Positions 3,021-42,739 of a stretch of 64,000 bases of DNA are shown in pieces. The notes beneath the pieces are model-generated. The model saw only the letters and a program-made list of their open reading frames with translations, was not told the DNA's origin and made no database searches. The position numbers and the translations under genes were made by a program. How positions within the stretch are numbered: position 1 is the first letter of the stretch; the number at the start of each line of letters is the position of its first letter. Source of the stretch: Antedon mediterranea (taxonomy: Eukaryota > Echinodermata > Crinoidea > Comatulida > Antedonidae); the NCBI RefSeq assembly GCF_964355755.1, contig NC_092675.1, forward strand, positions 6,606,312 to 6,670,311, read 5' to 3'.

Positions 3021-18154
<15,134 letters not shown>

Positions 18155-20246: not shown

Positions 20247-22872
20247 ATGGCAGCTCTAAAGTGTTTTATCGTCGTCTTCTTTTACTTTTTTCTTGAAATA
20301 AGTGAGTATATGTCACTATGAGAGGCTAATGCAATTTTTTTTTCCATGATATTTTTAATTCTTAAAACTAATTATAGCAACATGTTATAATTAAAAGTGT
20401 AGGCCTTCAATTTGCATTTGTAAATTGTAAGCTTAGAGTGGGAGGTAGCCGGATCACATTTAAAAACAAAATTATTTATAGTATTTTTCATATAAAAACA
20501 CGTATTGTTTCTCATGATTTCCATCTTATACTTGAGCGGTATCGACAATAAACACCATGCAGTATCATATCTTTTGGCAGCAACCTCCATCCCATGAGAT
20601 ATTGTCACCATCTCCTGACCTTGTTCCTGCTGTTTTGCTGATTAGTTAGTTCTTCAGCTTTTTAATCGATACATTCGGACATCAGCGTATTCGTTGGTTA
20701 TTTTCGTATAGTTAGATCAGGAAGGTACTTTCATTTTTATACTTCCCTGGTTAGATATTAGTTAGGTTATGGGCCCGTTGTCCTCATCAAATACGATATT
20801 GCAGGATATTGCCGCTAAATGATACCGCACGACAACCGGTTGTAATTTCAGTCTGACAACAGACTAGTCTTAAATGTTGATTATCGTCAGCACAACTTTA
20901 ATTTTAGCAATCCTTAAAAACATCTTTCTTTTGTGCGATCAGGTTTGGCCGATGAAGTTTGTTATGGCGATCTTGGTTGTTTCAATAACGTTAGTGCATG
21001 CCATAAAGTAGCCTTCCCGCCAATGGCACCAGAAGTTATGAACATTCAGTTCCATTTATACACCCAGATGAACCCAATTACGTCTGTCATCGTTGATCCC
21101 TATGTCCCAGAATCACTGACATCAACATATTTCCATCCGTATTTGAAGACGGTGGTTCTCATCCACGGTTGGTTCGGTATAGTCGGTGGGTGGACAGATA
21201 TGGCAAGAGACGCTCTTTTACAACACGTACGTATTATCAAGAATTTACTGAAATGACATTCCATGATGTTCTTTTAAAAACCTTTAATTGAAAATATTAA
21301 GAGAAGTAATGTTGAACCCTTACACAATATGTTGAATGTCAGAGAATGTTGCCTCTAAGGAATTTCGCTTTCTGTTGATCCTTAGAAAGAGTGCCAGTGA
21401 TCATTGTACTATACTATTATGCATGCTATCTTGTTTGGGTATTATACTGTACATTTTGTTACGTTGTCGTCTTTAAACCCTTCGCTTTTTGCTCAAAAGA
21501 TTTCTACCAAGCCAAACTGCTTCTCATTACAGTAGGACTTTTTATACGGATAAACGAAACCTTTTTTGAATTATTTAAAAAGTAATACTAGTAATGCATG
21601 TTTCTATAACGTGATTTATAGGAGTCGGTTAATATCATAGCCGTAGACTGGAGTATTGGTGCAGGTAATATTATCTACCAGAGGTCATGTCAAAATGCAC
21701 GAGTAGCCGGCAAGAAGACTGCATTATTCCTGAAGTTCCTTCATGACATCACTGGTGCAAGCTATAGTAACATGCATATAATTGGTCATAGTTTGGGGGC
21801 TCACGTCGCTGGGTATGCAGGAGAAGCACAGCCGGGCATTGGACGAATAACAGGTTTGTCTTTCATTGCATTTTTAGGATTAAATTTCCCACTATGACGC
21901 AACACAAGGACGTCACAAACAAAGAAAGAAAATAAGCAACCATTTCATGACCCTACCAATGACTTAATCTACCCTGCATGTAAAATGTCATGCTAAATAA
22001 TAAAAACAAATTAATGTTTTCAGGTAGCGACGCAGCTGGGCCTGGTTTTGCCGCGTTCGGTCCAGAATGCAGACTAGATACCACAGACGCAGATTTTGTT
22101 GACGCAATCCATACTGACGGAGAACTGCTTGGTTTGGGCATGCATCGTGCAGTAAGTAACTTAGCCAATGTCATACAGTATTGTAAATACCAAGTGACAA
22201 CCAATTTCAGGATAATATAATGTGATTTAAGTAAAATTTGCTGATAGAAAAGTGATACAAATAAAAAGATAATGATCAACTTGCAATATTGAGCTTTCTT
22301 TTGATTTAATTTAGTACGCTCATATGGATTTCTATCCTAATGGAGGAAAAGATCAACCGGGATGCCGAAAGCCAATTTTTCTTGACAGTGAGTGATCAGA
22401 ACATTGATATCAATATGTTTCATTCAAACCATTACTTCATTCTTTTGTATTAAGACAAAGTAAAAATTATTTTTCATTTGACATTGATATCATAAAACAA
22501 GAATTTCTCTATGCAACAAAATTTAAAATGTCTATCTTTCTATCTCTATTGAGATCCAGTCACTGATACCCACATCATTGTCATTTGCCTTTAGATTTAC
22601 CAATAATAAAGTTATCTTTATTATTTTTCATAATAGATGGGTGTAGTCACGCAAGGTCGGTTTACTTTCTTCTAGAAAGCATTCTAGGTGATGCGTGCAG
22701 ATTTAAGGCCTACCCGTGCCCTAACTTTGAAGAATTCACGGCAGGTAATTGTACAGATTGCGGCCCGTCAGGATGTCCTGAGATGGGCTATTATTCGGAC
22801 ACGTACAACAACCGGGCCAGAGGAACGTTTTACCTGCGTACCAACGAAGATTCTCCATATTGTGTATCTTAG
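20247..22872 (+). CDS. Secreted pancreatic-lipase-family enzyme 1 (short lid, no PLAT domain)
   Basis: The predicted alpha/beta-hydrolase cleaves lipid esters outside the cell. Exons are 20247-20301, 20943-21226, 21622-21853, 22024-22151, 22315-22387 and 22637-22872 (1008 nt, 335 residues). The hydrophobic N-terminus MAALKCFIVVFFYFFLEIS is a signal peptide, followed by the family hallmark [10 protein letters not shown]. The triad is Ser170 (GHSLGAH), Asp193 (GSDAAGP, where the three paralogues have GLDPAGP) and His262 (CSHARS). Only 9 residues lie between the cysteines bounding the lid, against 15 in the other three. At 335 residues it lacks the C-terminal PLAT domain of pancreatic lipase (about 465 residues). 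A short lid without PLAT resembles phospholipase A1-type members, so phospholipase activity is inferred. It is the most divergent of the cluster. A poly(A) signal follows at 22942. Confidence 0.93.
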
Positions 22873-22941
22873 ATTAAAACGTCATCAGATAATATATAGA
22901 ATATGGAAAATGAGTATGATGTGTAAACTTCGAAAATGCTT

Positions 22942-22947
22942 AATAAA
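22942..22947 (+). terminator. Poly(A) signal AATAAA, lipase 1
   Basis: AATAAA lies 70 bp past the stop codon of lipase 1, a normal distance for a compact 3' UTR. The assignment is by position only. Confidence 0.55.
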
Positions 22948-24087
22948 ATTAATGGTAATAGTAATTTCATTCCTTTAAGATTATGATTTATTTGTTGGCA
23001 ATTCGTTATGTTTGATTGTTTTGTGTAGGCCTAGTATTTGAAATTCGAATAGCGCAATCAAGCTTAGTTATTTACTAGGGTAAGTTGGTGACCCCAACCA
23101 CTCTTAGTGATGCCGACATAACTAGTGTGTACGGGATCACAATTAATAGGAGCCACGTGCAAAAAAAAAAAAAAAAAAAAAAATAAAAAGAGTTTGGTTT
23201 TAAAATAAATTAACATTAGGTGAATGAACTAATTGAGACTAGAGACAAGAGTGCGCTGACTTCTTATTATCTAAATACGGTATCTTACTAACAATTAGGC
23301 CTATTATCACACTGATATGTCTTTTATCTATTACTTACATTTAGGCCTATTATCACAGTGATATTGACATTTCTTTTATCTATTTAATTAAAACAACGAC
23401 GAATAACACAGCTGTTTACATTCTTTATGAAAAGTTTCACCTGTTATTTTATTTTAAATTACATATCTTCTAGAATCCTTTTTGATATTAAATTATATTC
23501 TAGCATTCCCCAAATAATTCTTCATTCAATTCATCATTGAATATAATTTATTAATCGTTTGAAACAAGACAAAGTGTATTAATTAAGAACTTTATACCGT
23601 ATTATATTTTAAAATTATAAATGGACCAGAAGCCCCTGATGAAATCCTTTAAATTTTTTTGACCAATCATTTAGTATTTAAACAAGGCCATATACATGGC
23701 TGCAGTCGCGTGCGCAAATTTAAGTGTTTACCGACCGCCCAACCAACCGACCAACATAGTGAGCGGTAGAGTCTAAAAATAACATGTATTGGTTATTCTT
23801 TGGTGGGTACAGTTAGATAATGAAATACACGATACCTTAGACGACAACAAATGCTTGCAATGATTGTTTTTATTGAATCTTGTCTGAATATCAACATAAC
23901 AATAGCAATTGATATCATATGGTTGAATCATCGTCATTTTTATCATAAGTATAATTATCATTAAAACTGAAATACATTTTGCTTAACTAAAATTTTTCGT
24001 GCGATAACTGATAACATTTTCCCCGTGTGTCGAGGCATCATGCTATACTTTTAGAACGCTCTTTCTGTAGGCTACATAGTGATTTGT
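22948..24087. other. Convergent intergenic region between lipases 1 and 2
   Basis: No gene was recognised. It contains a 23-base A run (about 23161), a repeated GGCCTATTATCACA/GTGATAT block (23298 and 23344), and a segment (23690-23760) with CCGACCGCCCAACCAACCGA. That segment is inverse to the GGTCGGTCGGT repeats at 61150-61200 and 61780-61860, both of which lie beside the shared sequence CATGTATATGGCCTTG or a variant of it. Confidence 0.55.
23869..23874 (-). terminator. Possible poly(A) signal, lipase 2
   Basis: TTTATT on the plus strand reads AATAAA on the minus strand, about 214 bp beyond the lipase 2 stop. Other AT-rich candidates exist, so this is tentative. Confidence 0.3.
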
Positions 24088-26685
24088 CTATTCCGCACTC
24101 TTAAGTTGCTTAATCAGGTCTTTAAGCCAACAAAACGGTTGCTTGCCAGATGTTCTAAGGTAGAATGTTCCACTGACTTGACTGACGTCAGCGAAGTAAC
24201 CCATTTTGGGGCAACCAAGGAGTCCGCATGATGTACATTTCCCACTCTCAAAGCGTCGGTTATTAAGACACGGGAAGGCTGAAAAGCAGTCTTCCTCCTC
24301 GATGCTTTCGATAAAAAATTCAGTTGCTCGACTGTGACTGCATGACACCTCTGACATGTTTGCTAAAATGTAAACAAAGATTGTATCGGTGTTGATATTC
24401 ATATCACAATTCTAATAGAGAGCTTTCTATTTTGAAGACCTTAAGACTTACCGTACGTATACGCATATTGCAAATCAAAAACTGCCATACACTATACGCT
24501 GCATCTACTATGACGTAGGCAATATTGCAAAATAAATAGCGAACGATACATTGTAAAGTTGAAGAATGCAACATTTTTAACTGCTCGATGAATACATAAT
24601 TGGAAGTTGAATGTCAAACTTACCAAACATGTCAAAAACTGTAGGTGGGCAACCAGGCTGCTCTTTACCACCGTTCGGATAAAAGTCCATGTGGCCAATC
24701 TTGAAAGAAGGATAAATACAGTACGGATTTAGTGGTGTCAAAACAAATCATGTCTGTACAATTGTTGACTGGTATTCTTAGATAAAGAAACACTCATTTT
24801 GGAGTTTAAGATGAGTTAAGCTCTGTCTACACTACTACCAAACTAGTTTGACAAAAAGTGTGATGTGCCCAAATATGGTAGAGTGATATGTCATTGTGTC
24901 CATATATGGGAATATTACATTTTTGTCACTTAAAGTTTGATAGTGTAGAGAGAGTATTATACTTACTGCATCAAGCATCCCAAAACCAACCACTAGTAGA
25001 GTTTCGCCATCGGTGTGGATGTTGTCAACAAGAAGAGCATCAGACGGATCCAATCTACAAATTGGATCGGTGTTGCGAAATCCAGGACCAGCAGGATCAA
25101 GACCTGATATTTAATTTATATGGATTAAAATAAACTATATTTAATTCATATATTTTGTTCATGTGATTTTATTGGTTATGATATTAGTAGAAAAAGTGTA
25201 TTATTTGGTAACTTTGTGTTTTTGTCTACTTCCATCTGTAGACAACAAACACAAAGTTGATAAACAAATATCATTATTTGGTTCAATGCCACAATGTGAG
25301 TATTTGGTTGCTTCACAGGCATCGTAATATCACTTTAACCCGAGTACCACATTTTGTATATATAAGCTACTACTGTACAACTAATTTAAAAAAAAAACCA
25401 TATAAGCTGACGGGTTTTTGTCAGCAAGCACGTTAGTCCCTAATAGCCAACCAAGTATACAAACTCTAGCTCTACCCAAGATAAACTTCGAAAACTTCCG
25501 AAAGCAAAATGTTACTTACCGGTTATCCGTCCGATACCTGGTGTTGTCTCACCAGCAAAACCAGATATGTGAGCACCAAGACTATGGCCAACTAGATGCA
25601 TCATAACATATAGAGCACCAGATTCCTTTTGAAGAAACTGGATGAACATTCCAACCTCTCGACCAACAACTCTAGTGTTTTGTACAGATTTGGTGTAAAT
25701 ATCTTTAGCGCCTCTTCCCCAGTCAATAACAAACACATTAACATTTCTCTAAAGTAAAAATATTCATTTGTTTGTTATATTGGAGCAGTTTAAGTTGTAT
25801 AGCAGCTAATTTAAACATAAAGGTACGTTCTTTTGTACCATTCTATTTCCATTTCAAATACAGTATTACATTTTCTGTAATCATTTGTATGTTACTATTG
25901 TATATTATATACAATTATAAATGATATTTGCATTAATAGGCTTAAACTGAATTGAATTAAGGATTTAGGATCTGCTTTGCCCAATGTAAATAATTATTGG
26001 GAAGGAACGTAAATATCAACATATTTAAGCATATAAGTTGTCATGCTACACAATAATATTACCTTACCCTCTTAATAAGTTTGTCTTTAGCCGTCTGAAC
26101 CCAGTTAGATTTAGTTCCACTCGATGTATATCCATGAATAAGGAATACTGTCTTCAGTAATGGGTTAAAATTGGAAAGCAGCAAAGATGCCGCCTGAGTT
26201 CGATCCACCTCCCAGAAATCGGTAGGATTATGTTGCGTGTAAAGAAGGAATCGTGTACCGATGTAGGCTGGTGATCTTGGAGGAAAGTGCCAAAATGAGT
26301 CATACGGTGCGTCGCTGCTGAAACATCCTAGGTCACCATAACATACCTCCTCAGATGAAACTAAAGTAAGGAGATTGAGTGTATTTCATAGCCTAACTAT
26401 GTGTTCTAATGTGAATAATTATAACAACAAAAAATAGTCACTTTAAACGAGCCTCTTTCGGCCTAACGTTGAATCACTGTTGCTTTTGCAATTTCATTAA
26501 GCTTTTGAGATTTTCTTTCTATTTCTTGTATTTTCACACTCACCAATTCAGCAAAATGATAAATTATTAAATCTTGAATATAACATAAAAGAAAATAATC
26601 GTCGCGTTTACAAGAAGATTTTGATACATTACTTACCAGAAAGAACAATAAAAGAGCAAATCAACAAGTGTGTAAACGAAAACAT
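24088..26685 (-). CDS. Secreted pancreatic-lipase-family enzyme 2 (inverted member)
   Basis: Minus-strand exons are 26637-26685, 26068-26360, 25520-25748, 24967-25103, 24624-24699 and 24088-24362 (1059 nt, 352 residues). The start ATG at 26685 gives the signal peptide [28 protein letters not shown] follows. The triad is Ser170 (GHSLGAH), Asp193 (GLDPAGP) and His271 (CSHSRA). The lid loop between cysteines has 15 residues. There is no PLAT domain. The C-terminus runs about a dozen residues past the point where the paralogues stop and is lysine-rich ([11 protein letters not shown]). It shares exon phases and nearly all exon lengths with lipases 3 and 4 but is the only member on the minus strand. 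Intron 4 contains a family A inverted-repeat element. Activity is inferred from the triad; substrate is unknown. Confidence 0.93.
24819..24955. mobile_element. Family A inverted-repeat element in lipase 2 intron 4
   Basis: It begins AGCTCTGTCTACACTA and ends TTTGATAGTGTAGAGAGAG, a decayed inverse. The interior has GTGTGATGTGCCCAAATATG, as in the copy at 1488-1630. It ends about 11 bp from the exon 4 splice donor (exon begins at 24967), so the insertion nearly abuts coding sequence. Confidence 0.75.
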
Positions 26686-26719
26686 CTTGAATGCGAGCGA
26701 GTTAAGAAAGGTAGTCTTA

Positions 26720-26726
26720 ATTTATA
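26720..26726 (-). promoter_or_regulatory. Candidate TATA box, lipase 2
   Basis: On the minus strand CCAATATAAATTAAG lies 35-41 bp before the ATG. If used, the 5' UTR would be only around 5-15 bases, so it may be fortuitous. Confidence 0.35.
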
Positions 26727-27387
26727 TTGGCTTCTTATCTTTTCAGGTTACTCAAGTCAAAGAGACCAGTATGGTTTTATTTGCAATTACTTAGTATACA
26801 TCCGTCTTGCAAAATTACTTATGTTATAATTTAAAATAGGCTAAACGAATGGAAATTGTACTTTGCAAATATTGACGTGGCATAGATGGATTTCATTTTA
26901 TCATTAACAGTTCGGCCACATGTTTTTTGTATGTGTTAATACTCAACTCTTTTATTTGTTCATATCTGCCTACTTTGTTAAATATATTTTCTTATTAATT
27001 GTTATGTATAATATTATTATGTAGCACTATACATATTAATATAATATATTAATTGCATAATAATGTTTATCAACCAGTCTATTGAAGTCATGGATTATTT
27101 GTACATTATTCTTCATTTGTCTTACTAATTATAACTTTAAGAAATAGGTTGAGCTATACTGTAGTTATGAATATTATTGAACTGAAATCTATATTATAAA
27201 TAAGGTAAAATCGAGTATCGTTAATAGGTTCGTTATTAATTTAAAACATACGGTGCTTTGCAGACTAATAGATAATTTAAGCAATTAGGCTTATATCATT
27301 TAGCAAATACTTATCTGAAATGTCCTGCTTTTCAACAGATACTTCAACATCTGTGTCAGGTGATACTGGATTCGACGCGCAAACCTC
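26727..27387. other. Divergent intergenic region between lipases 2 and 3
   Basis: About 0.8 kb separates the two starts, which point away from each other. The interval is AT-rich with no ORF of note. Candidate TATA boxes lie at both ends, so a shared regulatory region is plausible. Confidence 0.5.
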
Positions 27388-27395
27388 TATATAAA
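27388..27395 (+). promoter_or_regulatory. TATA box, lipase 3
   Basis: TATATAAA within CTCTATATAAACAT lies 79-86 bp upstream of the lipase 3 ATG. Initiation about 30 bp downstream would give a 5' UTR of roughly 50-60 bases. Confidence 0.55.
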
Positions 27396-27473
27396 CATAC
27401 ATTTAATTTCTATCATTGTTAGTACATCAAAGTTTTCTAAGCAAACCTTCGTTTTATAAATTGACTCTGTAAA

Positions 27474-30400
27474 ATGTTGCTGTTGTTGATTGTAGCGCTG
27501 TCTTCAACGTCTGGCAAGTTGACTTAATTTTTTCTACTATCTAAATTTACTATAGTGACTAAATAACCTTAGACTTAAAAACTAATTTCTCTGTGTATTA
27601 AACATGGATAACAAACTTATTTATTCATGATATACATATTCTTATATAGGCAGTGGTATACAGTCTTTATCGTTTAGCATTCCCATTGCAATCATTTGAA
27701 TGTCTTGCCTGGTCAAGTTTGATTTATTGTTTCGTTTTGTTTATGCTTTTTTTCGGTAAAAAAAAAATCACACCATATTGAGTTATAACAAGAATAGTAG
27801 ACAGTAGTTTGTCATCGAGTATTACTGTGGGTTTATGCTAGACACTTTACTGAGGTCCACAATAGATGTGTATTTAATAATACAACTTTATTTTGCTTTT
27901 TTTTTTATTGCATAGCTTTTGCCGACCAAGTGTGCTATGGTGATTTAGGCTGTTTTACAGACACCTATCCGTGTAGCCGTACTAAAAGTTTTCCGCCGAG
28001 ATCTCCTGATTTTATTCAGACTAAGTTCTATCTGTATACCAGGAATTCTAATAACGCTTTCAAAATTGATAGAAACGACGCTTCGACACTCCAGAAATCA
28101 ACATTCGATTCTAGTAAAAACACCATTTTTCTTATACATGGCTATACCGAATCTGGGCTCTATTCTAATTGGGTTAACAATGTCAGAAACCAACTTCTGA
28201 ACTTAGTAAGTAAAATATGTTGCCATTACAACGATTAAAAAAATTAGAATGTCTTAAATAGTCTTGAAAATATGAATTGTATTGTAAAAAAAGGCATTTT
28301 TACAATAATTATTTTACAAACATTTTTACCTACCCAACACATCACCAGATTTCATGTAGATAATATAAACGACAAAGTAGACACAATGTGTGTAGGTAGA
28401 CCTATTCATAGCCATAGCCTAGAACACTGTATTTAAATAATCTTTTTATAGTTTTTGTTTGTATATTTGTTACTAGGAAAAACAAAACGTGATAGCTGTT
28501 GACTGGGAACGTGGTGCCAAAGATATCTACTACAAATCTGTACAAAACATTCAAGTAGTCGGTGCTGAGGTAGCAAAGTTTATTGAGCTTTTGAACAATG
28601 AGCTTGGTTATCCTAACAAGAATATATACATCATTGGTCACAGTCTCGGCGCACACGCAGCTGGTTACGCTGGAGCGGCGAGCTCTGGGATTGGTAGAAT
28701 TACAGGTAGGCCTTCAAGTCTATTAGACCAAAGGTGGTTGTTTTCCAAAAATCAAAAGATCCACGAAATAATCATAAATAGCAACAGATTATAGGCCTAT
28801 AGAAACTCAGAAAGATTACTATGTGGTCATCGTAGTTGTCTACATTTCGTCTTTTATACCAAGAATGGCATTTGCAACGACAAGGGACGAAGGGTAGAAT
28901 GAATTATGACCTCACCGGTGGTATTTTTTTCGAAATTACAACAACCATTTTCTGTTGTTTTAATTCCCCCTTTTTTTTCAATATATTATATTTAGCATCG
29001 AATATTGTATTGACATGGATGCGGAAAGAAAGTTTGATGCATATGGTTGTTTAGTATAAGTATAAGTGTAGTAGTAAATGGAGTGTAACTGTAGATTATT
29101 TTACCTATATTTGATCGAATATTAAAGACATTGACAGTAATTTTAAAGGGAAGCAATGGGGGCTCGTTTGCATTAGATCATTATAAGGCACGTGTAAACC
29201 TTAAGGTGTACTTGATTCCAGGTCTTGATCCTGCTGGTCCTGAATTTAGATATCTGGATCCTACCTGCCGCCTGGATCCTTCAGATGCATCTCTTGTGGA
29301 TAACATCCACACTGATGGAGAGAGACTGGATGAATTGGGATTTGGTCTACTTCAACCGGTAAGCGCTCTTCACAAAACACAACGATTTTATTAAAAAAAA
29401 CAACTTTACTCTATCTTGAAATGGGAACACAAAGCAGAATTATAGCAACAATTATTAACAAATTAACTGCTATACTTGGTATATATTGATTGGGCTATAC
29501 TGGAAGAGGAGGTTATACGTAGGCCTACCCGACCTAGGTCTAACGTTTAGTAGCCTACTTGACTATACCTTTTTTGTTTGTATAACGTTAACCTCTAACA
29601 TTTCTTAACAGTTCTTATTTTTTGTTTGCAATTAATTAATTAATTATCTCAAACAATACTTATTGTATCTGGTATATCTGGTGACGTCACAAAATTGTTT
29701 CAATATGTATTACATAGCACGCCTTCTGTCGCTCTCTGCATTCTGCCAAATACTTTGCTTAGTGTCTGCTGAGCGCTTAACTTACAATGCTGATTTTAAT
29801 AGAAAAAAGACTCATAAAAAGTTTATAAAATACATATGAATGTATGAATATCAAACCAACGAACGCATAAATTATAAAGTTTTCCTTTACCTCACCTAAA
29901 ATAATAATATTTGTAGTATTATGATAATCATTATTACTATATTTTAAAATCAGCTTGGTCACATGGATTTCTACCCTAATAGCGGCAAAGAACAACCCGG
30001 ATGCCCCGTGACAGTGTTCGATGCATTGGGTAGGTTTTAAACAATATATACATAACTATAATGCTATTAATATTATTGTTATTTTGTCTGCTGCTGGATA
30101 AGATATTAAAACTCATTAATAAATCAAGTTCCACAACACACTAACCAAATTTAATGTTTGTACTATTTTGGATATTTGGAATGTTTTGAGCAAAATGTTT
30201 GTGACCACGCTTATCCATGTATATGAGTAAAATGTTAATTATTAACTAATTTCAATATTGTATTTCAGCGGATATTGATGAGGTGTCTTGCAGTCATGGT
30301 CGGTCGCATCTGTACTTTCTGGAAAGTATGGGTTCAGCAAGTTGTAGGTTCAAATCGACCCCATGTTCTACGTGGGATCGTTATGTTGCCGGCAAGTGTA

Positions 30401-30507
30401 GCTGTGGTTCATCCGGGTGTCCCGAAATGGGATATTACGCTGACCAAAGCAGTGCAAGAGGAAACTTTTACCTAGTCACAGGGAGTTCTTCGCCATACTG
30501 CCAATAA
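27474..30507 (+). CDS. Secreted pancreatic-lipase-family enzyme 3
   Basis: Exons are 27474-27513, 27916-28205, 28477-28705, 29222-29358, 29954-30029 and 30269-30507 (1011 nt, 336 residues). The first exon encodes a short signal peptide, MLLLLIVALSSTS. The mature start has [11 protein letters not shown]. The triad is Ser166 (GHSLGAH), Asp189 (GLDPAGP) and His267 (CSHGRS). The lid loop has 15 residues between cysteines, and the protein ends just after the cysteine-rich segment CSCGSSGCPEMGYYAD, without a PLAT domain. Intron 1 uses a GC donor (CTG|GCAAGT at 27514). Other junctions are GT-AG. Exon lengths match lipase 4 in exons 1, 3, 4 and 5, marking these two as the closest pair. Confidence 0.94.
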
Positions 30508-31007
30508 ATTAGACAATTTAGTGGTAATCATCAACATGATTCAAATATACACCAGCATAACAAAACTATATACAGTACACAATGTTAATTGAATTAATAA
30601 GAAACAATTATAAATAATCGTTTAATAATTATTTTAATTGTTGTTTTGTTTAGATTTTAAAAGTAATACAATATGACGATAAACATTTAGTAACGTATTA
30701 AATTCAACAAAGTGATCTTATTAAACTGAATATGGAATATTGCTGTCTGTTGATTTTGTATCACGTGACATTGGTTTTTAAATCGTCCGTCTGGTAGACG
30801 AGTGCCGCTAAGGTAAAATTTTCCATTTAGCGATGAAATAAGCCTGTTTTTGTCCTCCATATAACTCATAAACATTCATCATGATCGTGAAACATTCACA
30901 ACCAAAACATCGCCAAGTAACAATACAAAATAGAGATGTAAAGCAGGAAATGTTATGTTGAACAGTAACGAGGAAACAGATGTTCAGGACCGTAGACCGT
31001 AGCCAGG

Positions 31008-31056
<49 letters not shown>

Positions 31057-34000
31057 GGGGGGGGGGAGGGGGTGATCACTATGACACTAAGTAATTGGGT
31101 CACCAGGTACATCCAGGGACAAAAAATGCGGGTTATTTTCCGGGTGAAAATCGGCAATTTATTTGCAAAGTTTATAAATTTACAGACATGTATCGCTCGG
31201 CGTACGCTCATACAGAGGAGAAGGTATGAGTTGTTCATGAACGAGTTTACGAATTTTTCAATTTACGAATAAGCTTTTGTACTGTGGGGCACGTATTTGG
31301 AAAATGTTCAGAGATGAGGGTGAGGTATTTGGCATGTCGAGAATGGGGGTTCGAGTCGGTTAGGGGGGGGGGGGGGGGTGTCGCTGTAAGGGGGGGGGGG
31401 GGGAGAGGGCTGTTTCCCCCTGATGTTTAGTGTAACTTTTTTTTTTTAATGTATGGTGTATGGTGGTGTGGTAACTGTTTGTCTGTGGTTATGATGATGC
31501 CTTGGGTAATTATTAACGATTAATCTGAAGAATGTAGATAACAAATTACGTGACGACTAACGAAGATTACTAAATTGATTACATTCTTAAGGAATAGTTG
31601 AAGTCGAGATTATTGTACATTTATTTGTTTCGTGACTCGTGTATCCGTCTATAGAGTCGACAAGATATTCCTGACTTTCTCGACAAACAACGAGGGGTAA
31701 CACTACCCTGTGAAAGATGACTTGAAGCCAGATTGTGTGTGTCGTATCTGAATTACAGACACAATTATATTACTACCATTTGCACATTCTTTGGTAAATA
31801 ACAGTGTGCTGGGTTGGAGAAGAAAATCAAAACTGAAAAAGATTATATTACATAAGGGCTACGACGTAAATACCACTTTTATCCTCCTTTTTAATCCAAC
31901 AATAATCAAAGTAAAATTTGAAACCCACCCCCACACCCACCAAAAACCAACTAAAGCTCTCAGGAGAAAATCCCATTTTAAAATGTGATGGCGCTAGTTA
32001 CGATCCGTTGAGCATGATTAACTAATGAATGATGTAATGCATAAACGGACATACATATTATAGGATAAAGATTTGTTCTCGTGGTCCATTGCGAGTTCAG
32101 GTTATAGACAGCTGTACCACCGCATGCTTTTGTAATAGCTGTTATATGTGTAAAAAAAAATTATGAACGAATTTAGCTAATTGCTGATTTTGTACTTGTC
32201 ATCAGAAGTCTGATTAGTGGCCGACGTCATAGAAAAAATGATTATTATCCGGATTGAAAAAATGTAAACTTTTACCCATACCAAAGATTGTATAGCGCCG
32301 CTACCCATACTTGTCTACATATTTCTCTTTCTGTTGTAAATTAACATAGTTATACCCGCATTTCTTTTAGTCGAATTAGTCCTAAATATGATATGAATGA
32401 ATAGGCCTAATGAATGTTTATATAGAACAGTTGTTTTATATAACATTTAAATAGATTCTTGTCATTTAAATCATATTGAATAAAAGCTAGGCTTAGCCTA
32501 CATTTAATTCACATTGAAACAGTAACATTTATTTGTTTTTTAATATAATATATTAAATATTATTTTTAATCGGATTTTATAAACACTGTAGTGTTAATTA
32601 TGTAAAAAAAAAAGACCAAACAATTCTAGGCCTAGCTAGGCTGAAGCGCCTAGGCCTAGCCTAATATAACACTCCTAGTTAGGCTAGTAACAAAATGTAT
32701 GTATTACCAATGTAAAATTCAATAGAATATGATATTAAATGATTAGTAAATAAACAATTATATTACTTTAACCTCATTCGAAGTATGTAAATACTTTATT
32801 AGTCCTGAGAGACAACGTGACTTCACGTGGTACACGCGAGAAAAATATTATGGAATGCACTGAATTTTTAAACTTGAAATATCAAAATCATACAAACGAT
32901 CTAAAGCTAATTTAATGTTTTGGACGGCGTAGATCTGTTTTTAATAGTGCGGGCGGGGGTAACGTATACAAATCGAAATACTTTGCGAGCGAAGCGAGCA
33001 ACCTTAGGCTGAGGGCCAGTGGGCCGCCAAGTCTCTTTGAGTAATTTATAGGTCGTTTCAATCGATTTCTGAGCACATAAAAATTCCGCCCAGAAGAACA
33101 CAATTATTTTGGGTTACGCACTTTTTAGGCACTGGGCCTAATGCGCCACTGGTTATATTCACGCAAAATCTATTCTTCTTAGATACTGTATTTTCTGAAA
33201 TTATATACGATACATCTTGCTCAAAGTCTTACTTTCTATTTCATTTCAAACAATTTAATGATTTTGCTGTTGAAAAAGTGAGGGTGAGGACAATCCTCCA
33301 CTAAAAATATTTGTGTGGGAGGATCTCCCCAGGATCTGCGTCGGTGGTTTTAGCCTAAGTTAGTACATTATCTCTCCAAAAATTTACTTCCGTCGCGATA
33401 CCAGTCTCACACTAAATCTTGCGGCGGAAGTACAAAATAGGCGGTGCTGTATTTTAAAAGAAAACAGTATAATATAACAACAAAATTCCAAACGTGATAA
33501 GACATTTTTTTCATACACGGAAAAAAGTACTATTGAACGAAGATATTGTGAAGATAAAATATAACTTGATGGGAATAAAATAGATTGATTCACAAATGAT
33601 AATTGTCATGATGGTTTAAACGAATTACAGTAGGAACAATAACACCGAAGATTTGGATGAAAACTATAAATTTAGAATAACATAGTTATAGGAAATCTGA
33701 CAAATCAGAATAGAAAAAGTGAAACCTCTAGAAATGTATTTTTTATAAGCAAAGAATTCTCATAAACACAAATATTTTGTGCTGTATATATTGAGCGTGT
33801 ACAATACATTTGGTAAGATAAGCATTTTGAATGTTTAACAGATGAAGAACCGGATTGTGGAACTTGTATACGAGGAAACAACCGCGTCCCAGATTAGTAG
33901 ACTTAGTTAACTCTCCGATACCGGTTATGGACATTTTATTTCAGATACATTTCTTCAAAAAAGAAAGCAAACTAAATAAAAACATAGGACAGCCGTATAC

Positions 34001-35239
34001 AAAACGGTATAAAGTAAGCAGATAAAATGTAGAAAACATTATGACAGGAATGCATGGTCACTAATACAGCAATTTCATTGAAAAGCCCCAACCCAATACT
34101 TTGTAAAGTATGATATACCATGGATTAATGAGATTCTATTTTTTACTCCATGGATATGCAGAGCCGGTTTAACCTTCATGAAACCCCAAACTACAACATT
34201 AGTAAATTACCTGTTGATGAAATGGAAGAAACCCACAGTTTACAGGTGTCCGCTTATTTCTAAACATATTTGAAGTTGTCACTTGTCAATTTTCACTAAT
34301 AGCACTATTAGAAGTCATGGTTAGGGTATTGTACTTTATGTAATATTACTAAATGACGCCAGTGAAAAATAAATAATAGAATATCAACATGTGTCATTAT
34401 TCAATATATAAAAATAGTATGCAATTAAAGGACACGGAGAATACATGTGCAGCAGCAGTGCATTAAAAAATATATAAATACTATACCGTGGCTTTGATGG
34501 TTTAGATACTATTAAAACAAACTTAGATATTGAAAAAAAAGTATGTTCTTATACATATGTTTAGTTTTTGATATCAAATTTTCGTTTTTTTGTGAAGGTG
34601 AAGATAAACGTTGAAACTTACCAACGTTTCGTGCGTTAGCATCGCACTTTTTCAAGGTAGTGGTGTCAGCTTGGTTTGCCGACACTGATCATGGCATAGT
34701 CACGTGATGTTGATATCAAAAATATTTTGGGAAGGAGATGAAATTTTTCAATTTCATATGTTTAGTATTTCATCGCAAACTGAACAATTCGTTCGCAATC
34801 ATTACACTATTACATGCACCTGTAGAGCATTTTATGAGTTTAAGAAGCCGATTTCTATATAGCCAAAACTGTCAATTATTTAAAACACCACTCACGCTTA
34901 TCCATATCTATATCCATTATCGTTTTACTTGATAAGGTAATGTTTATCGATTTTATAAATGAAAAATCTACAACCTTTATGGTAAGATAAGTTTAAGTAA
35001 AACTGCGGTTCACATTTTAGAAGTGCTAATTTTCATCATGCATCATCTATGATTTCAGCAATTACCATTAACAAGGTGTGAAAATTCTCATCAAAACGGG
35101 CTCTTAAAATGTTTGGTTAGGCCCATTTGAACGATAAGAGTAATAACTATTTAGCTTATCCAAACAACTTTAACAAATTATTTATAAGTTTATAGCGGTC
35201 ATTAAAAGATATTTCGTGACTGATGACATCAAACAACAG
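30508..35239. other. Intergenic region between lipases 3 and 4
   Basis: About 4.7 kb without a recognised gene. It includes a GT microsatellite followed by a G run (about 31010-31070), further G runs near 31361 and 31391, a GCGAGCGAAGCGAGC palindrome-like motif at about 32987, and a stretch at about 34605-34660 (ACCAACGTTTCGTGCGTTAGC...) that resembles a SINE or LINE piece. Open frames here are short and lack family motifs. Confidence 0.55.
31010..31072. repeat. (GT)n microsatellite followed by a poly-G run
   Basis: About 21 GT dinucleotides run into about a dozen G with one A. Frames encoding Cys-Val or Thr-His repeats on either strand are artefacts. Confidence 0.95.
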
Positions 35240-35246
35240 TATAAAT
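35240..35246 (+). promoter_or_regulatory. Candidate TATA box, lipase 4
   Basis: TATAAAT in CAGTATAAATCAAG lies about 150 bp before the lipase 4 ATG, giving a 5' UTR of about 120 bases. Confidence 0.4.
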
Positions 35247-35391
35247 CAAGAATTTTCCTTTAGAAATTAACTAAAACGAAAGCGAATTCCATCACTACGA
35301 GTTGCTGAACGAAGAAGAAACAAAAACTACTTTATCTTTAATATTTAGTACTGTTTTTTTAAAGCTAACTACTGTACCACGTTCTTTTGAA

Positions 35392-38300
35392 ATGCTGTTG
35401 TTGCTTATTATAGCTTTATTTGCAGGATCTGGTAAGTTTTTATGCAATATTTCCTTTGTATTATATCTAAAAACACAGAAGAAAATATAATTATAACAAT
35501 CTAAAAGTCTTCAAATTAATGGAACAGAGAAAACGGAGAAAGAAGAAAGAGAAGAAACTTAATTGGAAAAACGTATCAATTTGGTGAATGTTGGTGTCTC
35601 TTTCTATAGTATGGATAGTCATCAATGACCTCAAAGGGCAAAGAGATAGAGCCTTGCTTGCCAAAACCAATATAACAAATTAAATCAAGTAGGCCTAGCT
35701 TTCAAGTAAACAGAATATACAATAGTAGGCCTATAGTATAGATATTTTAAAGCTTAAGCTTTCTAATTTCCACAGTTGCAGCAGATAAGGTATGCTACGG
35801 TGATTTGGGCTGCTTCACAGATGATCCACCATGTGACACCTTCCGAGATTTCCCGCCACGATCTCCCGATTATATCAACACAAACTTTCTCCTGTACACC
35901 CGCCTTAATGATGACATTCCCATGACGATTGATAGAACAAATCCATCGTCATTGAAGATATCAACATTTAACTCATTGAAAAGAACTGTTTTTCTTATCC
36001 ATGGCTACACCGAAGCTGGACTCTTCTCTGATTGGGTTCAGAATGTGAAAACCAAATTGCTGGAAATAGTTAGTACTTACCGTTTCTTTACCACAAAACT
36101 TCTAAAATACTGGTTACATTTACGATGATAGAATTTGTAGTTGTTTTACTTTTTGTAAATCTATATGCAGTAGGGGCATCCTTATTTAGGATATAAGGGA
36201 ACAGTTTCTTTTAGAATTAATGAAGGTCAATATTTTTAACATTACGGCCAAATCCTATTTGGGGAACACCTCTACTATTAAGGAGACACTTTGTTGGACC
36301 TCGAAACAGTGGTGCTACTGTAATATGCATTATTTTGTGGAAATAATCTTTTCCTGAAATAAAGGTCTATAAGAATATTTAAATATGAAATACATTGTTT
36401 AGAAATGCTTATCAATATTATTCTCGCCAGGAAAACGTAAATGTAATCGTTGTTGATTGGGGAATAGGAGCCCATGATATTTATTATAAATCAGTGCAGA
36501 ATATCAGAGTAGTTGGTGCTGAGCTGGGCATGTTTATTCAATTTTTAAATAAAGAGCTTGGCTATCCAAACAGAAAGGTACACATCATTGGACACAGTTT
36601 AGGTGCACACACTGCCGGTTACGCAGGAGCAATGAATCCTGGGATTGCTAGAATTACAGGTAGAATACCGTACATCTTTATGTTATCAGATTTATTTATC
36701 AAATTAAAATCATTATGTATTATTATTAGACACGATATTTAAAGAAACAGAATTTAAAATAGAATACTAAGATATATTTTCATTTAATCATTCGACAAGT
36801 TAGCTTGTTTGTAACAACACATTAAATTAACATTGTTTGCAGGACTTGATCCTGCTGGTCCAGAATTCCGTTACAATCATCCTGACTGCCGCCTTGACCC
36901 AACAGATGCGGTTCTTGTGGATAACATTCATACAGATGGAGAGACCCTTGTTAGTCTTGGTTTTGGTCTACTTCAACCGGTGAGAGCATTTCTAATTTAT
37001 TTCCACAAATCAGATTCATAAAAACAACAAACAATGGACAGTAGTAATGTGGAACAAAAAAAATAAACATCTTAGAATCTCATTCCGTATTATAAGTTCA
37101 TTCTGATAATATAGGAAAGGTGGAATGTGCAATTGTCCCAGATAAGATAGGCCTATTGACCATTTTTATCTAAGCAGTAATCATAGAAAACGTTTCCGGA
37201 ATAATAATATTCTGGTGCCATAGGTGTTAATTAATTGAATTTACTTGGAATGTACACGTATCTTTGAATATAGACCCATACATTTATTGAGTACAAAACA
37301 ATCAATCAGAGTAAAACATTATCATTAAGATATTTTATTAAAACAAAATAAAATAAAAGAGAGTTGAGTTAGCGAGAGTTCACTGCTAATGTTATATGTA
37401 CATACATAACATACATTATAGACCTATTTGAATGAAGAAAGAATAGCCTAAGTTAATGGCGACATGCCCTCTAAAGGGGAAACACATTAAACGAACAGTA
37501 CATGAATGTTCAGTATCAGCTTCTCTAGTAAATAAGGACGAAACACTACACAATAAGAGTCACAATGTGTAAATAATGGTAATGAAGAATCTTAGTAAAA
37601 ACAAACATTAACAGTTCAATGAGAAGATTTTTTGGGTGTTTGGGTGTGGCATGTTTTTGTTTAGTAGTTTACGTTTAGTCATTTTGTAACTCGTCATTTT
37701 TTAAACAGCTTGGTCACATGGACTTCTATCCAAATAGTGGAAAAGAACAACCCGGATGTCCTGCAACCGTATTCGATGCTCTTGGTAGGTACAACATGAA
37801 CTATGAATACATACAACGAACTTAAGTTAATGGTACTGGTGGTACTAATGGTATATAAATAATCGTACGAATTAAAAAAAAAAAAATAAAGATGTGATAA
37901 ATTAACAAAAATATTAACGAAAGCACTCAGAAACTGACTGAAACACTTACTAACTGACGAACACCTAACGTAAAATTGTAAAATTCTTCTACAAAGATTT
38001 ACTGCGAATATATATTTATATATATCCAATCTGCAGACAGTACTGTTTCGATCTTCTTAGATCTCGTCAGTGCAGCTCAGGTTTTGAAATGAAATGTACC
38101 GCAGGTATATATATTATTTATGTTTGTGTCTTAATGCTGTGTGTGATTAGATCTAGACATTTTCACCTTTACACATTTTCTATTTTGTTCCTAATTTTCT
38201 AATAATTACAACGAGGGTGTTTCGCTTCATGATGTAGTGGAAAGAGGACGTATAATTATGTGAACCCCAAACACGTCAGTAGCTCGCATAGCTTTAACTC

Positions 38301-38939
38301 TATTCCACCAGCGTGGGATTCGAACCCACGAATTTGTTTTGTTTGCTCAGTCGACTGAGTTAACCGGTACTCAAAATGAAGTTCATAAATATGCATATTT
38401 ATGACGCCATGATTAATTACGTAATATGAAGCGCGTTTTTTTTAAAATGGAAAATAAAATTGTTAATAATAATGATAACTTAAAATTTGTAGTCGCTATC
38501 GTGCTAACAAACAAACATACAAAGCAAGTACTATACTTGGCAAAATAGATGTTTGATAGATCTTATTATGGCGGAGATATTTAAAGAGAAGGGAGAAAGT
38601 AATTGCATTTCGAATCCCGCCTCTCCTAACACACCTCCTTGAAAAGTGTCGACCCTAAATAAAAATATCAATTGTATTTTCTATATTATTTAAGCGGCCA
38701 TCGATGAGGTGTCTTGCAGTCACAGCCGATCTCATCTCTACTTCCTTGAGAGTATGGACCAGTCAGCCTCTTGTCAGTTCAAATCCTACCCGTGTGCCAG
38801 CTGGGACCGTTTCGTTGATGGAAAGTGTTCAGACTGTGGCTTATTTGGCTGTCCAGTCATGGGTTATTACGCCGACCTAAGCCTAGCGAGTGGAAGCTTT
38901 TATCTAAACACAAGGAGTTCTGAACCATTCTGCAAGTAG
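35392..38939 (+). CDS. Secreted pancreatic-lipase-family enzyme 4
   Basis: Exons are 35392-35431, 35776-36068, 36431-36659, 36843-36979, 37709-37784 and 38695-38939 (1020 nt, 339 residues). The ATG at 35392 is the first in its frame and opens a signal peptide, [24 protein letters not shown] follows. The triad is Ser167 (GHSLGAH), Asp190 (GLDPAGP) and His268 (CSHSRS). The lid loop has 15 residues between cysteines. No PLAT domain is present. It shares intron phases and exon 3-5 lengths with lipase 3 and similar wording such as FGLLQP and IDEVSCSH. Intron 5 contains copy B of the tRNA-like repeat. Two AATAAA motifs follow at 39084 and 39095. Secreted lipase or phospholipase activity is inferred. 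Confidence 0.94.
38098..38555 (-). mobile_element. Composite repeat with a tRNA-like segment, copy B (lipase 4 intron 5)
   Basis: This is the shorter copy of the element at 18540-19858, with the same five blocks in the same order. On the minus strand the tRNA-like core (about 38372-38306) carries CTCAGTCGACTGAG and a well-preserved T arm, GTGGGTTCGAATCCCAC. It ends at CTTGGCAAAATAGATG, without the second half of the terminal hairpin. Confidence 0.6.
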
Positions 38940-39083
38940 ACCCGAACCAAGGCTGGTTGACAGGCTTGCTCAATTACATGCTGGATGGAGCATTTGACTT
39001 AAATAATCAATTAAATATACACAACAATTTTAAAAAATCAACTTAATGATAATTTTAATGAGAATTATTGAAATTGATTAAAA

Positions 39084-39100
39084 AATAAATAGTAAATAAA
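39084..39100 (+). terminator. Two overlapping-region poly(A) signals, lipase 4
   Basis: AATAAA occurs at 39084 and 39095, about 150 bp beyond the stop codon, suggesting the 3' end of the lipase 4 transcript. Confidence 0.5.
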
Positions 39101-39354
39101 ATGAACATACTATTCATCTGAGGAATTGTTGTCTTTCTGTCAAAAACATAAATCATAACTATATTCTGAGAAATTGGAAATGATATCAATACGAAGATCA
39201 ACTAGATATAGAAAGGTATATCATGACTATTGAATATATGTGAATACTACGTAAGACGACTAGCGTGTTTGTATTATAACGTTAGTTCATTAAATTGTTT
39301 ATGTCCACTCTAACAAACCCACTTCGGACTGTGCTCTATGTTACAATTATCGTA

Positions 39355-40675
39355 AATCTTCTAATAGTAACCCACACTCTAATAGTAAGCCTCCTTCTAA
39401 TAGTAACCCACACTCTAATAGTAACCCACACTATAATAGTAACCCTCCTTCTAATAGTAACCCACACTCTAATAGTAACCCTCCTTCTAATAGTAACCCA
39501 CACTCTAATAGTAACCCCCCTTCTAATAGTAACCCACACTCTAATAGTAACCCCCTTCTAATAGTAACCCACACTCTAATAGTAACCCTCCTTCTAATAG
39601 TAACCCACACTCTAATAGTAACCCCCCTTCTAATAGTAACCCACACTCTAATAGTAACCACCCTTCTAATAGTAACCCACACTCTAATAGTAACCCTCCT
39701 TCTAATAGTAACCCACACTCTAATAGTAACCCCATTCTAATAGTAACCCACACTCTAATAGTAACCTCCTTCTAATAGTAACCCACACTCTAATAGTAAC
39801 CCTCCTTCTAATAGTAACCCACACTCTAATAGTAGCCCCATTCTAATAGTAGCCCCCTTAAAATAGTAACCCACACTTTAATAGTAACCCCCTTCTAATA
39901 GTAACCCACACTCTAATAGTAACCCCCCTTCTAATAGTAACCCACACTCTAATAGTAACCCCCCTTCTAATAGTAATCCACACTCTAATAGTAACCCCAT
40001 TCTAATAGTAACCCACACTCTAATAGTAACCCCCCTTCTAATAGTAACCCACACTCTAATAGTAACCCTCCTTCTAATAGTAACCCACACTCTAATAGTA
40101 ACCCCATTCTAATAGTAACCCACACTCTAATAGTAACCTACACTCTAATAGTAACCCCCTTCTAATAGTAACCCACACTCTAATAGTAACCCTCCTTCTA
40201 ATAGTAACCCACACTCTAATAGTAGCCCCATTCTAATAGTAACCCCCTTAAAATAGTAACCCACACTTTAATAGTAACCCCCTTCTAATAGTAACCCACA
40301 CTCTAATAGTAACCCCCCTTCTAATAGTAACCCACACTCTAATAGTAACCCCCCTTCTAATAGTAACCCACACTCTAATAGTAGCCCCATTCTAATAGTA
40401 ACCCCCTTAAAATAGTAACCCACACTTTAATAGTAACCCCCTTCTAATAGTAACCCACACTCTAATAGTAACCCCCCTTCTAATAGTAACCCACACTCTA
40501 ATAGTAACCCCCTTCTAATAGTAACCCACACTCTAATAGTAACCCTCCTTCTAATAGTAACCCACACTCTAATAGTAACCCCACTTCTAATAGTAACCCA
40601 CACTCTAATAGTAAGCCCCCTTCTAATAGTAACCCACACTCTAACAGTAACTCCCCTTCTAATAGTAACCCACCT
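39355..40675. repeat. Minisatellite, 18-bp unit in alternating dimers, about 1.3 kb
   Basis: More than 70 near-identical units of CTAATAGTAACCC plus a 4-6 base tail alternate between an ACACT tail (CTAATAGTAACCCACACT) and a C/T tail (CTAATAGTAACCCTCCTT or CCCCTT). This gives a roughly 36-bp higher-order dimer. Larger blocks also repeat, such as the TTCTAATAGTARCCCC then TTAAAATAGTAACCC junction at about 39840, 40230 and 40390. Open frames across the array (THTLIVT or VTIRVW repeats) are satellite artefacts. It separates the lipase cluster from the ankyrin gene. Confidence 0.96.
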
Positions 40676-41515
40676 TATAAGTCAATCTATAATAATAACA
40701 ACCCACTACGCAAAGAGTAACCCATGGGGTTTACTATTAAAGTCACAAAAACTATTGACAAAATGACACTAGAATCAACATTTTGTTTATTTTATATTTT
40801 TCTTTTCAATATGAAGACTGGTCGTTTTTGATGCAGCCGTATTTTAAAAATAAGGAGATAATGCATGTTGATCTCGGGAATCCATCTCTTGTGTTAGAAC
40901 ATGGAGGTAAAAATAAAAATACTAATTTTACCTCTATGGTTACAGTAACAAAATGTTAATTACACAATGTATATTTAATGCAAAGTTGTTAGAATATTGA
41001 AGCCAAATGTTATCGTCAATAAGATAACACAGATACACACAACGCAACTGATAAACGTGTTGGATTATAGCTATTGATAATTGAGCCATTAAATATCTGT
41101 GTTGCTTAGATTTTCTGCTATTCTGTTTAAAGTTATAACATTTCTAAAGTTGTTCACAGTATAAAACAAACTTTGCTGGTGATTATATACAGCAATTGTC
41201 TCATGTAACCAAGCGACAATCGATTGGGACGCTATAAGAGTTCATTAAATCAATTTAAAGGTTTGTTATATTCTGTTTAGCACTATCAATGCCTTTAGGT
41301 GATTAGAAGACCGTTGACATAGTTGCAAACAGTGAACAAAAGACACGTACTTGAGTTTCTTTGTTCTGTTGTTTGTAAAGACTGTTTCTAAAAACAACTT
41401 ACTTAGTCTTACTTACTCTATGATATACTTGGTTCGTATAACTGAGCAGTGAAGATCACTATTTTCTATACATCGTTGCGATTTTCATCTTCACACAATA
41501 TTGAGTGAACTCAAA
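40676..41515. other. 5' flank of the ankyrin gene
   Basis: About 840 bp without a coding region. It probably holds the promoter and 5' UTR of the ankyrin gene. CTATAAGAG near 41230 is a weak TATA-like candidate. No element was recognised with confidence. Confidence 0.4.
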
Positions 41516-42739
41516 ATGACAACTGTAGTGAGGACATCACGGAACCATGGGCTTCATCGTGCTATTGCAGATTGTAGATTACATCAAGTAAGGTTACTAG
41601 TCGATATGGGATCAAATGCGAATGGCCGAGATAAATCTGGACGAACACCGTTGATGGCTACGTGTACAATTGATGATGAGCAAAAAGGTCTTAAGATGGC
41701 ACGTATATTTTTACACGCTAAAGCAGATATTAACAGTAAAGATGTACTCGGACGATCTGTGCTTTCTTACGCTGCCTTATTTGGTAGAGAATTGATAGCC
41801 GCACGTTTGTTACAGGAAGATACAATAGAGAAAAATGTTCCTGATCTTAACGGCGACACGCCACTGAATCTAGCAGCTTCTAAAGGACATTTAGAGGTCA
41901 CTAGACTTATTGCCAGCGTCCTTATTCGTGAGGGTCTAGGCGTTGACACTCGAAATAATGAGGGCTGCACTGCTTTGCTTTTAGCAACAAAGAATGGACA
42001 TTACCAGTGCGCTAAGGTATTATTAACCGAAGGGAACTCATCAGTGTACACCAGAGATAATATATTATATATGAATGCTACAGAATGGGCAAAGTACAGC
42101 CAAAAAATGTTTGAAGGATCTTTAAAGGAGAGCAGTGTTTCTTTACTCCAAACTTTCAAAGGCCAGCGCCATTCTATTGAAAACTTAGGAATTCATCAAC
42201 CTCATTTCTTACGTATAAATTTACCACCTATTCAACTACAAAACTTGAATAGTTCTTTCACAAAATCTTATGGTTTGAATCCAAATCAAACATGGTGCAT
42301 TATAAACGAACTTAGGAATCGCCAAAATAACTTAACTGATCTAATAAATATCTTAGAAGATATGGAAATAAAGGAAGATGAAAAAGAGGGAAAGAATAAA
42401 GATCGAGCGATGAGTACAATCAGTTCAATCGAAACACCATTCCCGAAGAATACAGATTCTCATCAGAAAACAAAACCGTACAACTTCAACCATGATTTAA
42501 GAATATTGTTTGAATTATATCAAAATCAGTTATCGAACAGACCACCACAAATATATAGGCCGGTGACAATGGCTACTGATAGGCGGCCTAGCTTCGAACC
42601 GATAGAACTTGAATCTAGGAGATCATTTGGACGCAGAGTTTCAACCAGACGTGGCAGTACGATGGGTAATCAACAGCCGATGCTACTCCGACGTAAGACG
42701 TCTTCAAATCTTTATCCCACCTACCAGCCTAGCTCATAA
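41516..42739 (+). CDS. Intronless ankyrin-repeat protein, possibly ANKRD63-like
   Basis: A single open frame of 407 residues starts at the ATG at 41516 (MTTVVRTSRNHGLHRAI). The N-terminal half (about residues 10-190) holds about five ankyrin repeats, with consensus pieces such as GRTPLMATC, GDTPLNLAASKGHLEV and GCTALLLATKNGHYQCAKVLL. The C-terminal half is low in structure, with a charged helix-like stretch (EDMEIKEDEKEGKNKDR) and a basic, serine-rich end (FGRRVSTRRGST, LLRRKTSSN) of the kind phosphorylated by basophilic kinases. There is no signal peptide or membrane segment, so it is probably an intracellular scaffold. The arrangement of a short N-terminal repeat block plus an Arg/Ser-rich tail in a single exon recalls vertebrate ANKRD63, recalled from general knowledge and unverified. 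Its neighbours do not suggest a function. Confidence 0.85.
   Translation: MTTVVRTSRNHGLHRAIADCRLHQVRLLVDMGSNANGRDKSGRTPLMATCTIDDEQKGLKMARIFLHAKADINSKDVLGRSVLSYAALFGRELIAARLLQEDTIEKNVPDLNGDTPLNLAASKGHLEVTRLIASVLIREGLGVDTRNNEGCTALLLATKNGHYQCAKVLLTEGNSSVYTRDNILYMNATEWAKYSQKMFEGSLKESSVSLLQTFKGQRHSIENLGIHQPHFLRINLPPIQLQNLNSSFTKSYGLNPNQTWCIINELRNRQNNLTDLINILEDMEIKEDEKEGKNKDRAMSTISSIETPFPKNTDSHQKTKPYNFNHDLRILFELYQNQLSNRPPQIYRPVTMATDRRPSFEPIELESRRSFGRRVSTRRGSTMGNQQPMLLRRKTSSNLYPTYQPSS

What the first reader, a model, noticed from the sequence alone, without database searches (positions are those of the whole stretch)
20247..38939. Four-gene lipase cluster with shortened lids and no PLAT domain
All four genes keep the Ser-Asp-His triad and identical intron phases (1,0,1,0,1). 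Each stops after the catalytic domain (335-352 residues) and has a lid loop of only 9 (gene 1) or 15 (genes 2-4) residues between the bounding cysteines, against about 23 in pancreatic lipase. In this family short lids and loss of PLAT go with phospholipase A1 activity and loss of colipase dependence. The set may be an expanded secreted phospholipase family.
Basis: partly seen in the sequence, partly recalled or inferred. Interest (0 to 1): 0.6.

Follow-up and report, generated by a model that had tools for sequence, protein, structure and literature searches.

The report
Tandem lipases lacking the tail domain
This echinoderm genome carries four neighbouring genes for secreted fat- or membrane-lipid-splitting enzymes that have lost the tail domain and shortened the flap over the active site, while their relatives about 70,000 bases away keep both; it is a tidy but ordinary example of a known enzyme family, and the sequence alone does not show that they are phospholipases.

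Summary
Four intact six-exon PF00151 lipase genes lie at 20247-38939 (gene 2 on the minus strand), with 335, 352, 336 and 339 residues, Ser-Asp-His, intron phases 1,0,1,0,1, and lids of 9 or 15 residues against 23 in PNLIP. No PLAT exon follows any of them. That negative was controlled: seven further lipase genes 72-146 kb beyond the window carry PLAT-like exons, which Pfam's PLAT search failed to recognise, and the same probes find nothing in the window cluster. All detected lipase-family genes of this genome (an echinoderm, by its bindin gene) sit in one 186 kb stretch: four with short lids and no PLAT, seven with lids of 18-23 and PLAT. The phospholipase A1 reading is only half supported. 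In PS-PLA1 both the lid (12) and the beta9 loop (13) are short; genes 2-4 keep a lipase-length beta9 loop (18 against 18-19), gene 1 has 15. The four form their own clade, whose place among PNLIP/PLRP, the PLAT-bearing neighbours and LIPH/PLA1A is unresolved. The loop pattern resembles guinea-pig PLRP2 and parasitoid-wasp venom lipases. Best guess: secreted, broad-specificity hydrolases without classic interfacial activation. A new member of a known kind.

The parts
20247..22872 (+). Lipase gene g1, 6 exons, 335 aa, hydrophobic N-terminus, lid 9, beta9 loop 15, stops after the catalytic domain
24088..26685 (-). Lipase gene g2, 6 exons, 352 aa (short extension after the last conserved Cys), lid 15, beta9 loop 18
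27474..30507 (+). Lipase gene g3, 6 exons (first intron GC-AG), 336 aa, lid 15, beta9 loop 18
35392..38939 (+). Lipase gene g4, 6 exons, 339 aa, lid 15, beta9 loop 18
22315..22387 (+). g1 exon 5: first lid cysteine and first part of the lid; the lid is interrupted by a phase-1 intron, as in g2-g4
28477..28705 (+). g3 exon 3, with the nucleophile motif GHSLG (the equivalent exons are 21622-21853, 25520-25748 and 36431-36659)
38940..41400 (+). Downstream of g4: no PLAT-like exon (the same holds for 22873-24087 and 30508-35391)
   Evidence: and 23 for part of it; the minisatellite at 39360-40673 lies here

Best explanation
Four old tandem duplicates of a secreted enzyme of the pancreatic-lipase family (PF00151), reduced to the alpha/beta-hydrolase catalytic domain. 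Shown: gene structure, catalytic triad, lid and loop lengths, no PLAT exon, purifying selection (g3/g4), PLAT-bearing relatives in the same locus. Inferred: each is secreted, probably by the gut or another epithelium. The short disulfide-closed lid (9-15 residues) is too small to form the full pancreatic-lipase flap, so the Ser-His-Asp site is largely open and needs no interfacial opening or colipase. The full-length beta9 loop of g2-g4 still supports acyl-chain binding, so these enzymes most likely cut the outer (sn-1/sn-3) esters of several dietary lipids (phospholipids, galactolipids, short- or medium-chain glycerides), as guinea-pig PLRP2 does. g1, with both loops shorter, is the likeliest specialised phospholipase A1.
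For: Gene models and phases. PF00151 whole-model hits. Best solved relatives are PLRP2/PLRP1/PNLIP, E 3e-84 to 1e-73, well ahead of LPL (2e-52) and hornet PLA1 (2e-26). Loop table, lid/beta9: g2-g4 15/18; g1 9/15; PNLIP 23/19; guinea-pig PLRP2 5/19; LPL 22/18; PLAT-bearing neighbours 18-23 / mostly 18. PLAT absent from the window cluster while the neighbours have PLAT-like exons that cross-match at E down to 1e-30. Window genes are a clade, 97/99. dN/dS about 0.16 for g3/g4. Guinea-pig PLRP2, the PLRP2 with a lid deletion, behaves kinetically like human PLRP2, an open-lid enzyme regarded as a galactolipase (PMC8287333). A pancreatic lipase-related protein 2-like protein is secreted in a starfish (PMC10448888).
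Against: No expression, structure or activity data. Loop length is an imperfect predictor of substrate. No signal-peptide predictor was run; N-termini were judged by eye. Tissue is unknown: in crown-of-thorns starfish such proteins are highly expressed in spines, so a non-digestive role is possible. N-terminal domains alone can be unstable or weak (PMC3745449).
Confidence: 0.55

Rival explanations
1. A dedicated secreted phospholipase A1 family: short lid and lost PLAT make the enzymes act on phospholipids and not on triglyceride.
For: Lids of 9 and 15 (11 and 17 counted with the cysteines) fall below the 18 linked with triglyceride hydrolysis in insects and the 22-23 of vertebrate lipases (PMC7240578, PMC9031518). 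g1 has both loops reduced (9/15). Grouping the window clade with LIPH and PLA1A (recalled sequences) is not rejected (p-AU 0.134).
Against: The beta9 loop of g2-g4 is lipase-length, 18. The nearest solved relatives are PLRP/PNLIP. The tree does not place them with LIPH/PLA1A. PLAT loss is not tied to PLA1 activity.
Confidence: 0.27
2. Ordinary digestive triglyceride lipases, in which lid shortening and PLAT loss change little.
For: Strong similarity to PNLIP/PLRP, lipase-length beta9 loop in g2-g4, and the isolated turkey lipase N-domain is active on olive oil.
Against: The lid is under 18 residues and lacks much of the PNLIP lid; long-lid, PLAT-bearing paralogues that could do this job exist in the same locus.
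Confidence: 0.15
3. The missing PLAT is an annotation or assembly artefact: PLAT exons exist but were missed.
For: Pfam's PLAT model did miss the PLAT-like exons of the neighbouring genes, so a Pfam negative alone would mean little.
Against: Exon probes from six neighbours that recover each other (many pairs at 1e-7 to 1e-30) find only noise in window 19-48 kb, and a genome-wide probe finds only the second cluster. In-frame stops stand close to where the neighbours have a splice donor.
Confidence: 0.03

Closest known systems
[quoted passage not shown]
   Same: Same fold family and triad; PLRP2 is the closest solved relative; short lid with full-length beta9 loop (lid/beta9 5/19 there, 15/18 in g2-g4)
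   Different: PLRP2 keeps PLAT (in 1GPL the PLAT letters are those of human PNLIP, a chimera) and the cysteine pair near the beta5 loop (Cys90-Cys101 of PNLIP by own knowledge), absent here; separate clade
PS-PLA1 (PLA1A) and mPA-PLA1 (LIPH/LIPI)
   Same: Same family; shortened lid
   Different: Lid 12 and beta9 13 there against 15/18 here (g1 9/15); they keep the C-terminal domain (own knowledge); not grouped with them in the tree, though not excluded
Insect neutral lipases, including parasitoid-wasp venom lipases with long beta9 loop and short lid
   Same: Same combination of long beta9 loop and short lid (DelePLA 18/13, c6971 18/16; PMC7240578); tandem expansion is common (PMC9143690)
   Different: Different phylum; no direct sequence comparison could be run here
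Second lipase cluster of the same genome (C6: 6742-6816 kb, genes A-G)
   Same: Same family, same chromosome stretch, shared phase-1 introns at RITG| and in the lid
   Different: PLAT-like exons present, lids 18-23, two introns at other positions; C and F have lost the catalytic serine
Starfish pancreatic lipase-related protein 2-like protein (Acanthaster oki.162.19)
   Same: Echinoderm secreted protein of this family
   Different: Domain make-up reported only as signal plus a pancreatic lipase-like domain; sequence not compared (PMC10448888)

Membership tests
Pancreatic lipase family catalytic domain (PF00151) | Whole-domain profile match above cut-off | tested here: met
   268.7 to 331.1 bits against a cut-off of 27
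Pancreatic lipase family catalytic domain (PF00151) | Ser-Asp-His triad with GxSxG | tested here: met
   GHSLG, D and H invariant in all four
Pancreatic lipase family catalytic domain (PF00151) | Lid closed by a cysteine pair | tested here: met
   C-9-C and C-15-C
PNLIP/PLRP (digestive pancreatic lipases) | C-terminal PLAT domain | tested here: not met
PNLIP/PLRP (digestive pancreatic lipases) | Lid of 22-23 residues (guinea-pig PLRP2 excepted) | tested here: not met
   9 and 15
PNLIP/PLRP (digestive pancreatic lipases) | beta9 loop of 18-19 | tested here: met
   18 in g2-g4; not met in g1 (15)
PNLIP/PLRP (digestive pancreatic lipases) | Nested in the PNLIP/PLRP clade | tested here: not met
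   Own clade 97/99, outside the PNLIP/PLRP clade (100/100); sister relation to it only 61/21
Secreted phospholipase A1 (PLA1A/LIPH type) | Short lid (about 12) | tested here: met
   9 in g1; 15 in g2-g4, which is intermediate
Secreted phospholipase A1 (PLA1A/LIPH type) | Short beta9 loop (about 13) | tested here: not met
   18 in g2-g4; 15 in g1
Secreted phospholipase A1 (PLA1A/LIPH type) | Phylogenetic grouping with LIPH/PLA1A | tested here: inconclusive
   Not recovered, not rejected (p-AU 0.134); the LIPH and PLA1A sequences were recalled, not fetched
Secreted phospholipase A1 (PLA1A/LIPH type) | sn-1 hydrolysis of phospholipid without triglyceride activity | not testable with these tools
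   Needs an assay

The most novel reading that the evidence does not exclude
The echinoderm PNLIP-type lipases split within one locus into a long-lid, PLAT-bearing set and a short-lid, PLAT-less set with a full beta9 loop; the latter is an independently evolved open-site, colipase-free phospholipase/galactolipase group, parallel to guinea-pig PLRP2 and the wasp venom lipases, showing that lid shortening and PLAT loss can evolve together.
Probability: 0.35. Interest if true: 0.42.

Novelty: new member of a known kind. Interest (0 to 1): 0.25.

Why it matters
In one genome, side by side, lipases with PLAT and a long lid and lipases without PLAT and with a short lid form a natural comparison of what these two parts do. 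A small practical point also follows: the standard PLAT profile misses the PLAT-like domains of these invertebrate lipases, so a Pfam negative should not be read as loss of PLAT.

Tried and rejected
(1) Pfam PLAT genome search as proof of absence: rejected, because it missed the PLAT-like exons of the neighbours (against 29, 32). (2) Finding the mitochondrion to name the organism: no COX1 match. GH6 (tunicate marker) not found, uninformative. Bindin found at E 2e-28, so an echinoderm. (4) Another lipase gene between F and G: none found in 6793.5-6808.5 kb. (5) Structure prediction: not run. Similarity at E 1e-84 to solved structures settles the fold. (7) Hornet PLA1 and vertebrate exon positions could not be brought into the comparison: no sequence or gene record was on hand. 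LIPH and PLA1A are recalled only and are marked as such.

Full report
Observation. The four gene models were rebuilt from the DNA and all check: six exons each, phases 1,0,1,0,1, GT-AG splice sites except one GC-AG intron (g3, intron 1), 335/352/336/339 residues, g2 on the minus strand. Each is a full PF00151 domain with an intact triad. Intercysteine lids are 9 (g1) and 15 (g2-g4), against 23 in PNLIP and 22 in LPL. Between the genes, codon positions 1 and 2 differ less than position 3; g3/g4 give dN 0.21 and dS 1.33 (synonymous sites are saturated in the other pairs); nucleotide similarity is confined to short, exon-sized blocks. These are old duplicates, not fresh copies or pseudogenes.

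Surroundings. The window is C6:6606312-6670311 of a 354 Mb, 18-contig assembly. A bindin match (E 2e-28) points to an echinoderm. Searches for PF00151 and for LPL-like and g4-like exons return matches only in C6:6.628-6.814 Mb: the window cluster plus a second cluster of seven genes (A-G) beginning 72 kb after the end of the window. Low-scoring candidates may have been missed elsewhere, so 'all lipases in one locus' holds for detected genes only.

PLAT. A Pfam PLAT search finds nothing on this contig and nothing downstream of three second-cluster genes. Yet those genes have a splice donor where the window genes have a stop, and comparison of their downstream frames with each other shows three conserved exons: a first (e.g. 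FKFEVFIDDPGWMKGSTEKGKLFVTLMG), a second (WEYDPDWYKPWDWDIWTNPEIYVHKI) and a short Cys-ending exon. With these in place gene D is a 472-residue two-domain protein in which Pfam reports PLAT only at E 0.026, under its cut-off but aligned to positions 8-99 of the 117-position model; in gene A it reports none. The domain identity therefore rests on position, length, the final Cys-ending exon and this weak profile match. Used as probes, these exons recover one another at E down to 1e-30 but give only noise in window 19-48 kb, and genome-wide a probe from the second exon matches only the second cluster. So the absence of PLAT in the four window genes is real as far as sequence can show, and it is a difference from their neighbours.

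Loops. Published values: lipases lid 22-23, beta9 18-19; PS-PLA1 lid 12, beta9 13 (PMC9031518). In insects triglyceride activity is linked to beta9 above 15 and lid of at least 18, counted with the end residues (PMC7240578). Measured here with one rule, lid/beta9: PNLIP 23/19, LPL 22/18, guinea-pig PLRP2 5/19, second cluster A-E 18-23/18, F and G 22/13, g2-g4 15/18, g1 9/15 (for E and F the script's beta9 number is wrong because it began at an earlier HT; the values given are read from the printed sequence). The window genes thus show half of the PLA1 pattern; their combination is that of guinea-pig PLRP2 and of some wasp venom lipases. Two further cysteines of PNLIP/PLRP (in NVCKNLFKVESVNC) are also absent from all four.

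Phylogeny. With LPL as outgroup the four window genes are a clade (97/99) beside PNLIP/PLRP (100/100) and the second cluster; the order of the three is unresolved (window plus PNLIP/PLRP 61/21; window plus second cluster as one clade p-AU 0.31). Adding LIPH and PLA1A (recalled, not fetched) leaves the window clade intact (98/100) and does not join it to them, without rejecting that (p-AU 0.134). Intron positions differ between the two clusters at two sites and agree at two (RITG| phase 1; lid phase 1), which suggests that the split between the clusters is old.

Function. PLAT loss is not by itself a phospholipase marker: the lone N-domain of turkey pancreatic lipase hydrolyses olive oil, although weakly and unstably, while that of the human enzyme does not (PMC3745449), and vertebrate PLA1s of this family keep a C-terminal domain (own knowledge). 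No colipase match was found (weak negative), so colipase dependence may never have existed here. I judge a broad-specificity, open-site secreted hydrolase most likely for g2-g4, and a phospholipase A1 more likely for g1 than for the rest. Echinoderm relatives are known as secreted proteins, for instance in crown-of-thorns starfish spines (PMC10448888), so a digestive role is likely but not certain.

Verdict. True and accurately described, with a useful added contrast to PLAT-bearing neighbours; a new member of a known kind, modest interest.

Noticed in passing
G000:C6:6742104-6815923 (L031-L036), outside the window: Second lipase cluster of seven genes with PLAT-like C-terminal exons that Pfam's PLAT model does not recognise exon by exon.
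   Followed up: yes
L032 (C6:6753330-6756124, gene C) and L035 (C6:6788609 on, gene F): Catalytic serine replaced: GHNLG in gene C, GFALG in gene F. Probably inactive lipase-like proteins with an otherwise kept frame.
   Followed up: partly
G000:C6:6767363-6767455: A further PLAT-like exon (55% identity, E 1.5e-6) after gene D that belongs to none of the modelled genes; a remnant or another gene.
   Followed up: no
window 44582-54820, minus strand: Run of at least five C-type lectin domain exons (PF00059) plus a PAN-domain exon next to the lipase cluster; a lectin gene cluster.
   Followed up: partly
window 41519-42739, plus strand: Uninterrupted 406-residue ankyrin-repeat ORF, possibly a single-exon gene or retrogene, between the lipases and the lectins.
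   Followed up: partly
window 3773-10655, minus strand: Exons of a calcineurin-like serine/threonine phosphatase (PF00149 match in 3776-4105).
   Followed up: partly
window 39360-40673 and 14371-14925: Two large minisatellites (18/71-base unit, about 74 copies of the 18-mer; 28/179-base unit), the first starting about 420 bases after the end of g4.
   Followed up: no
window 27514-27915: First intron of g3 uses a GC donor where its closest paralogue g4 uses GT.
   Followed up: no
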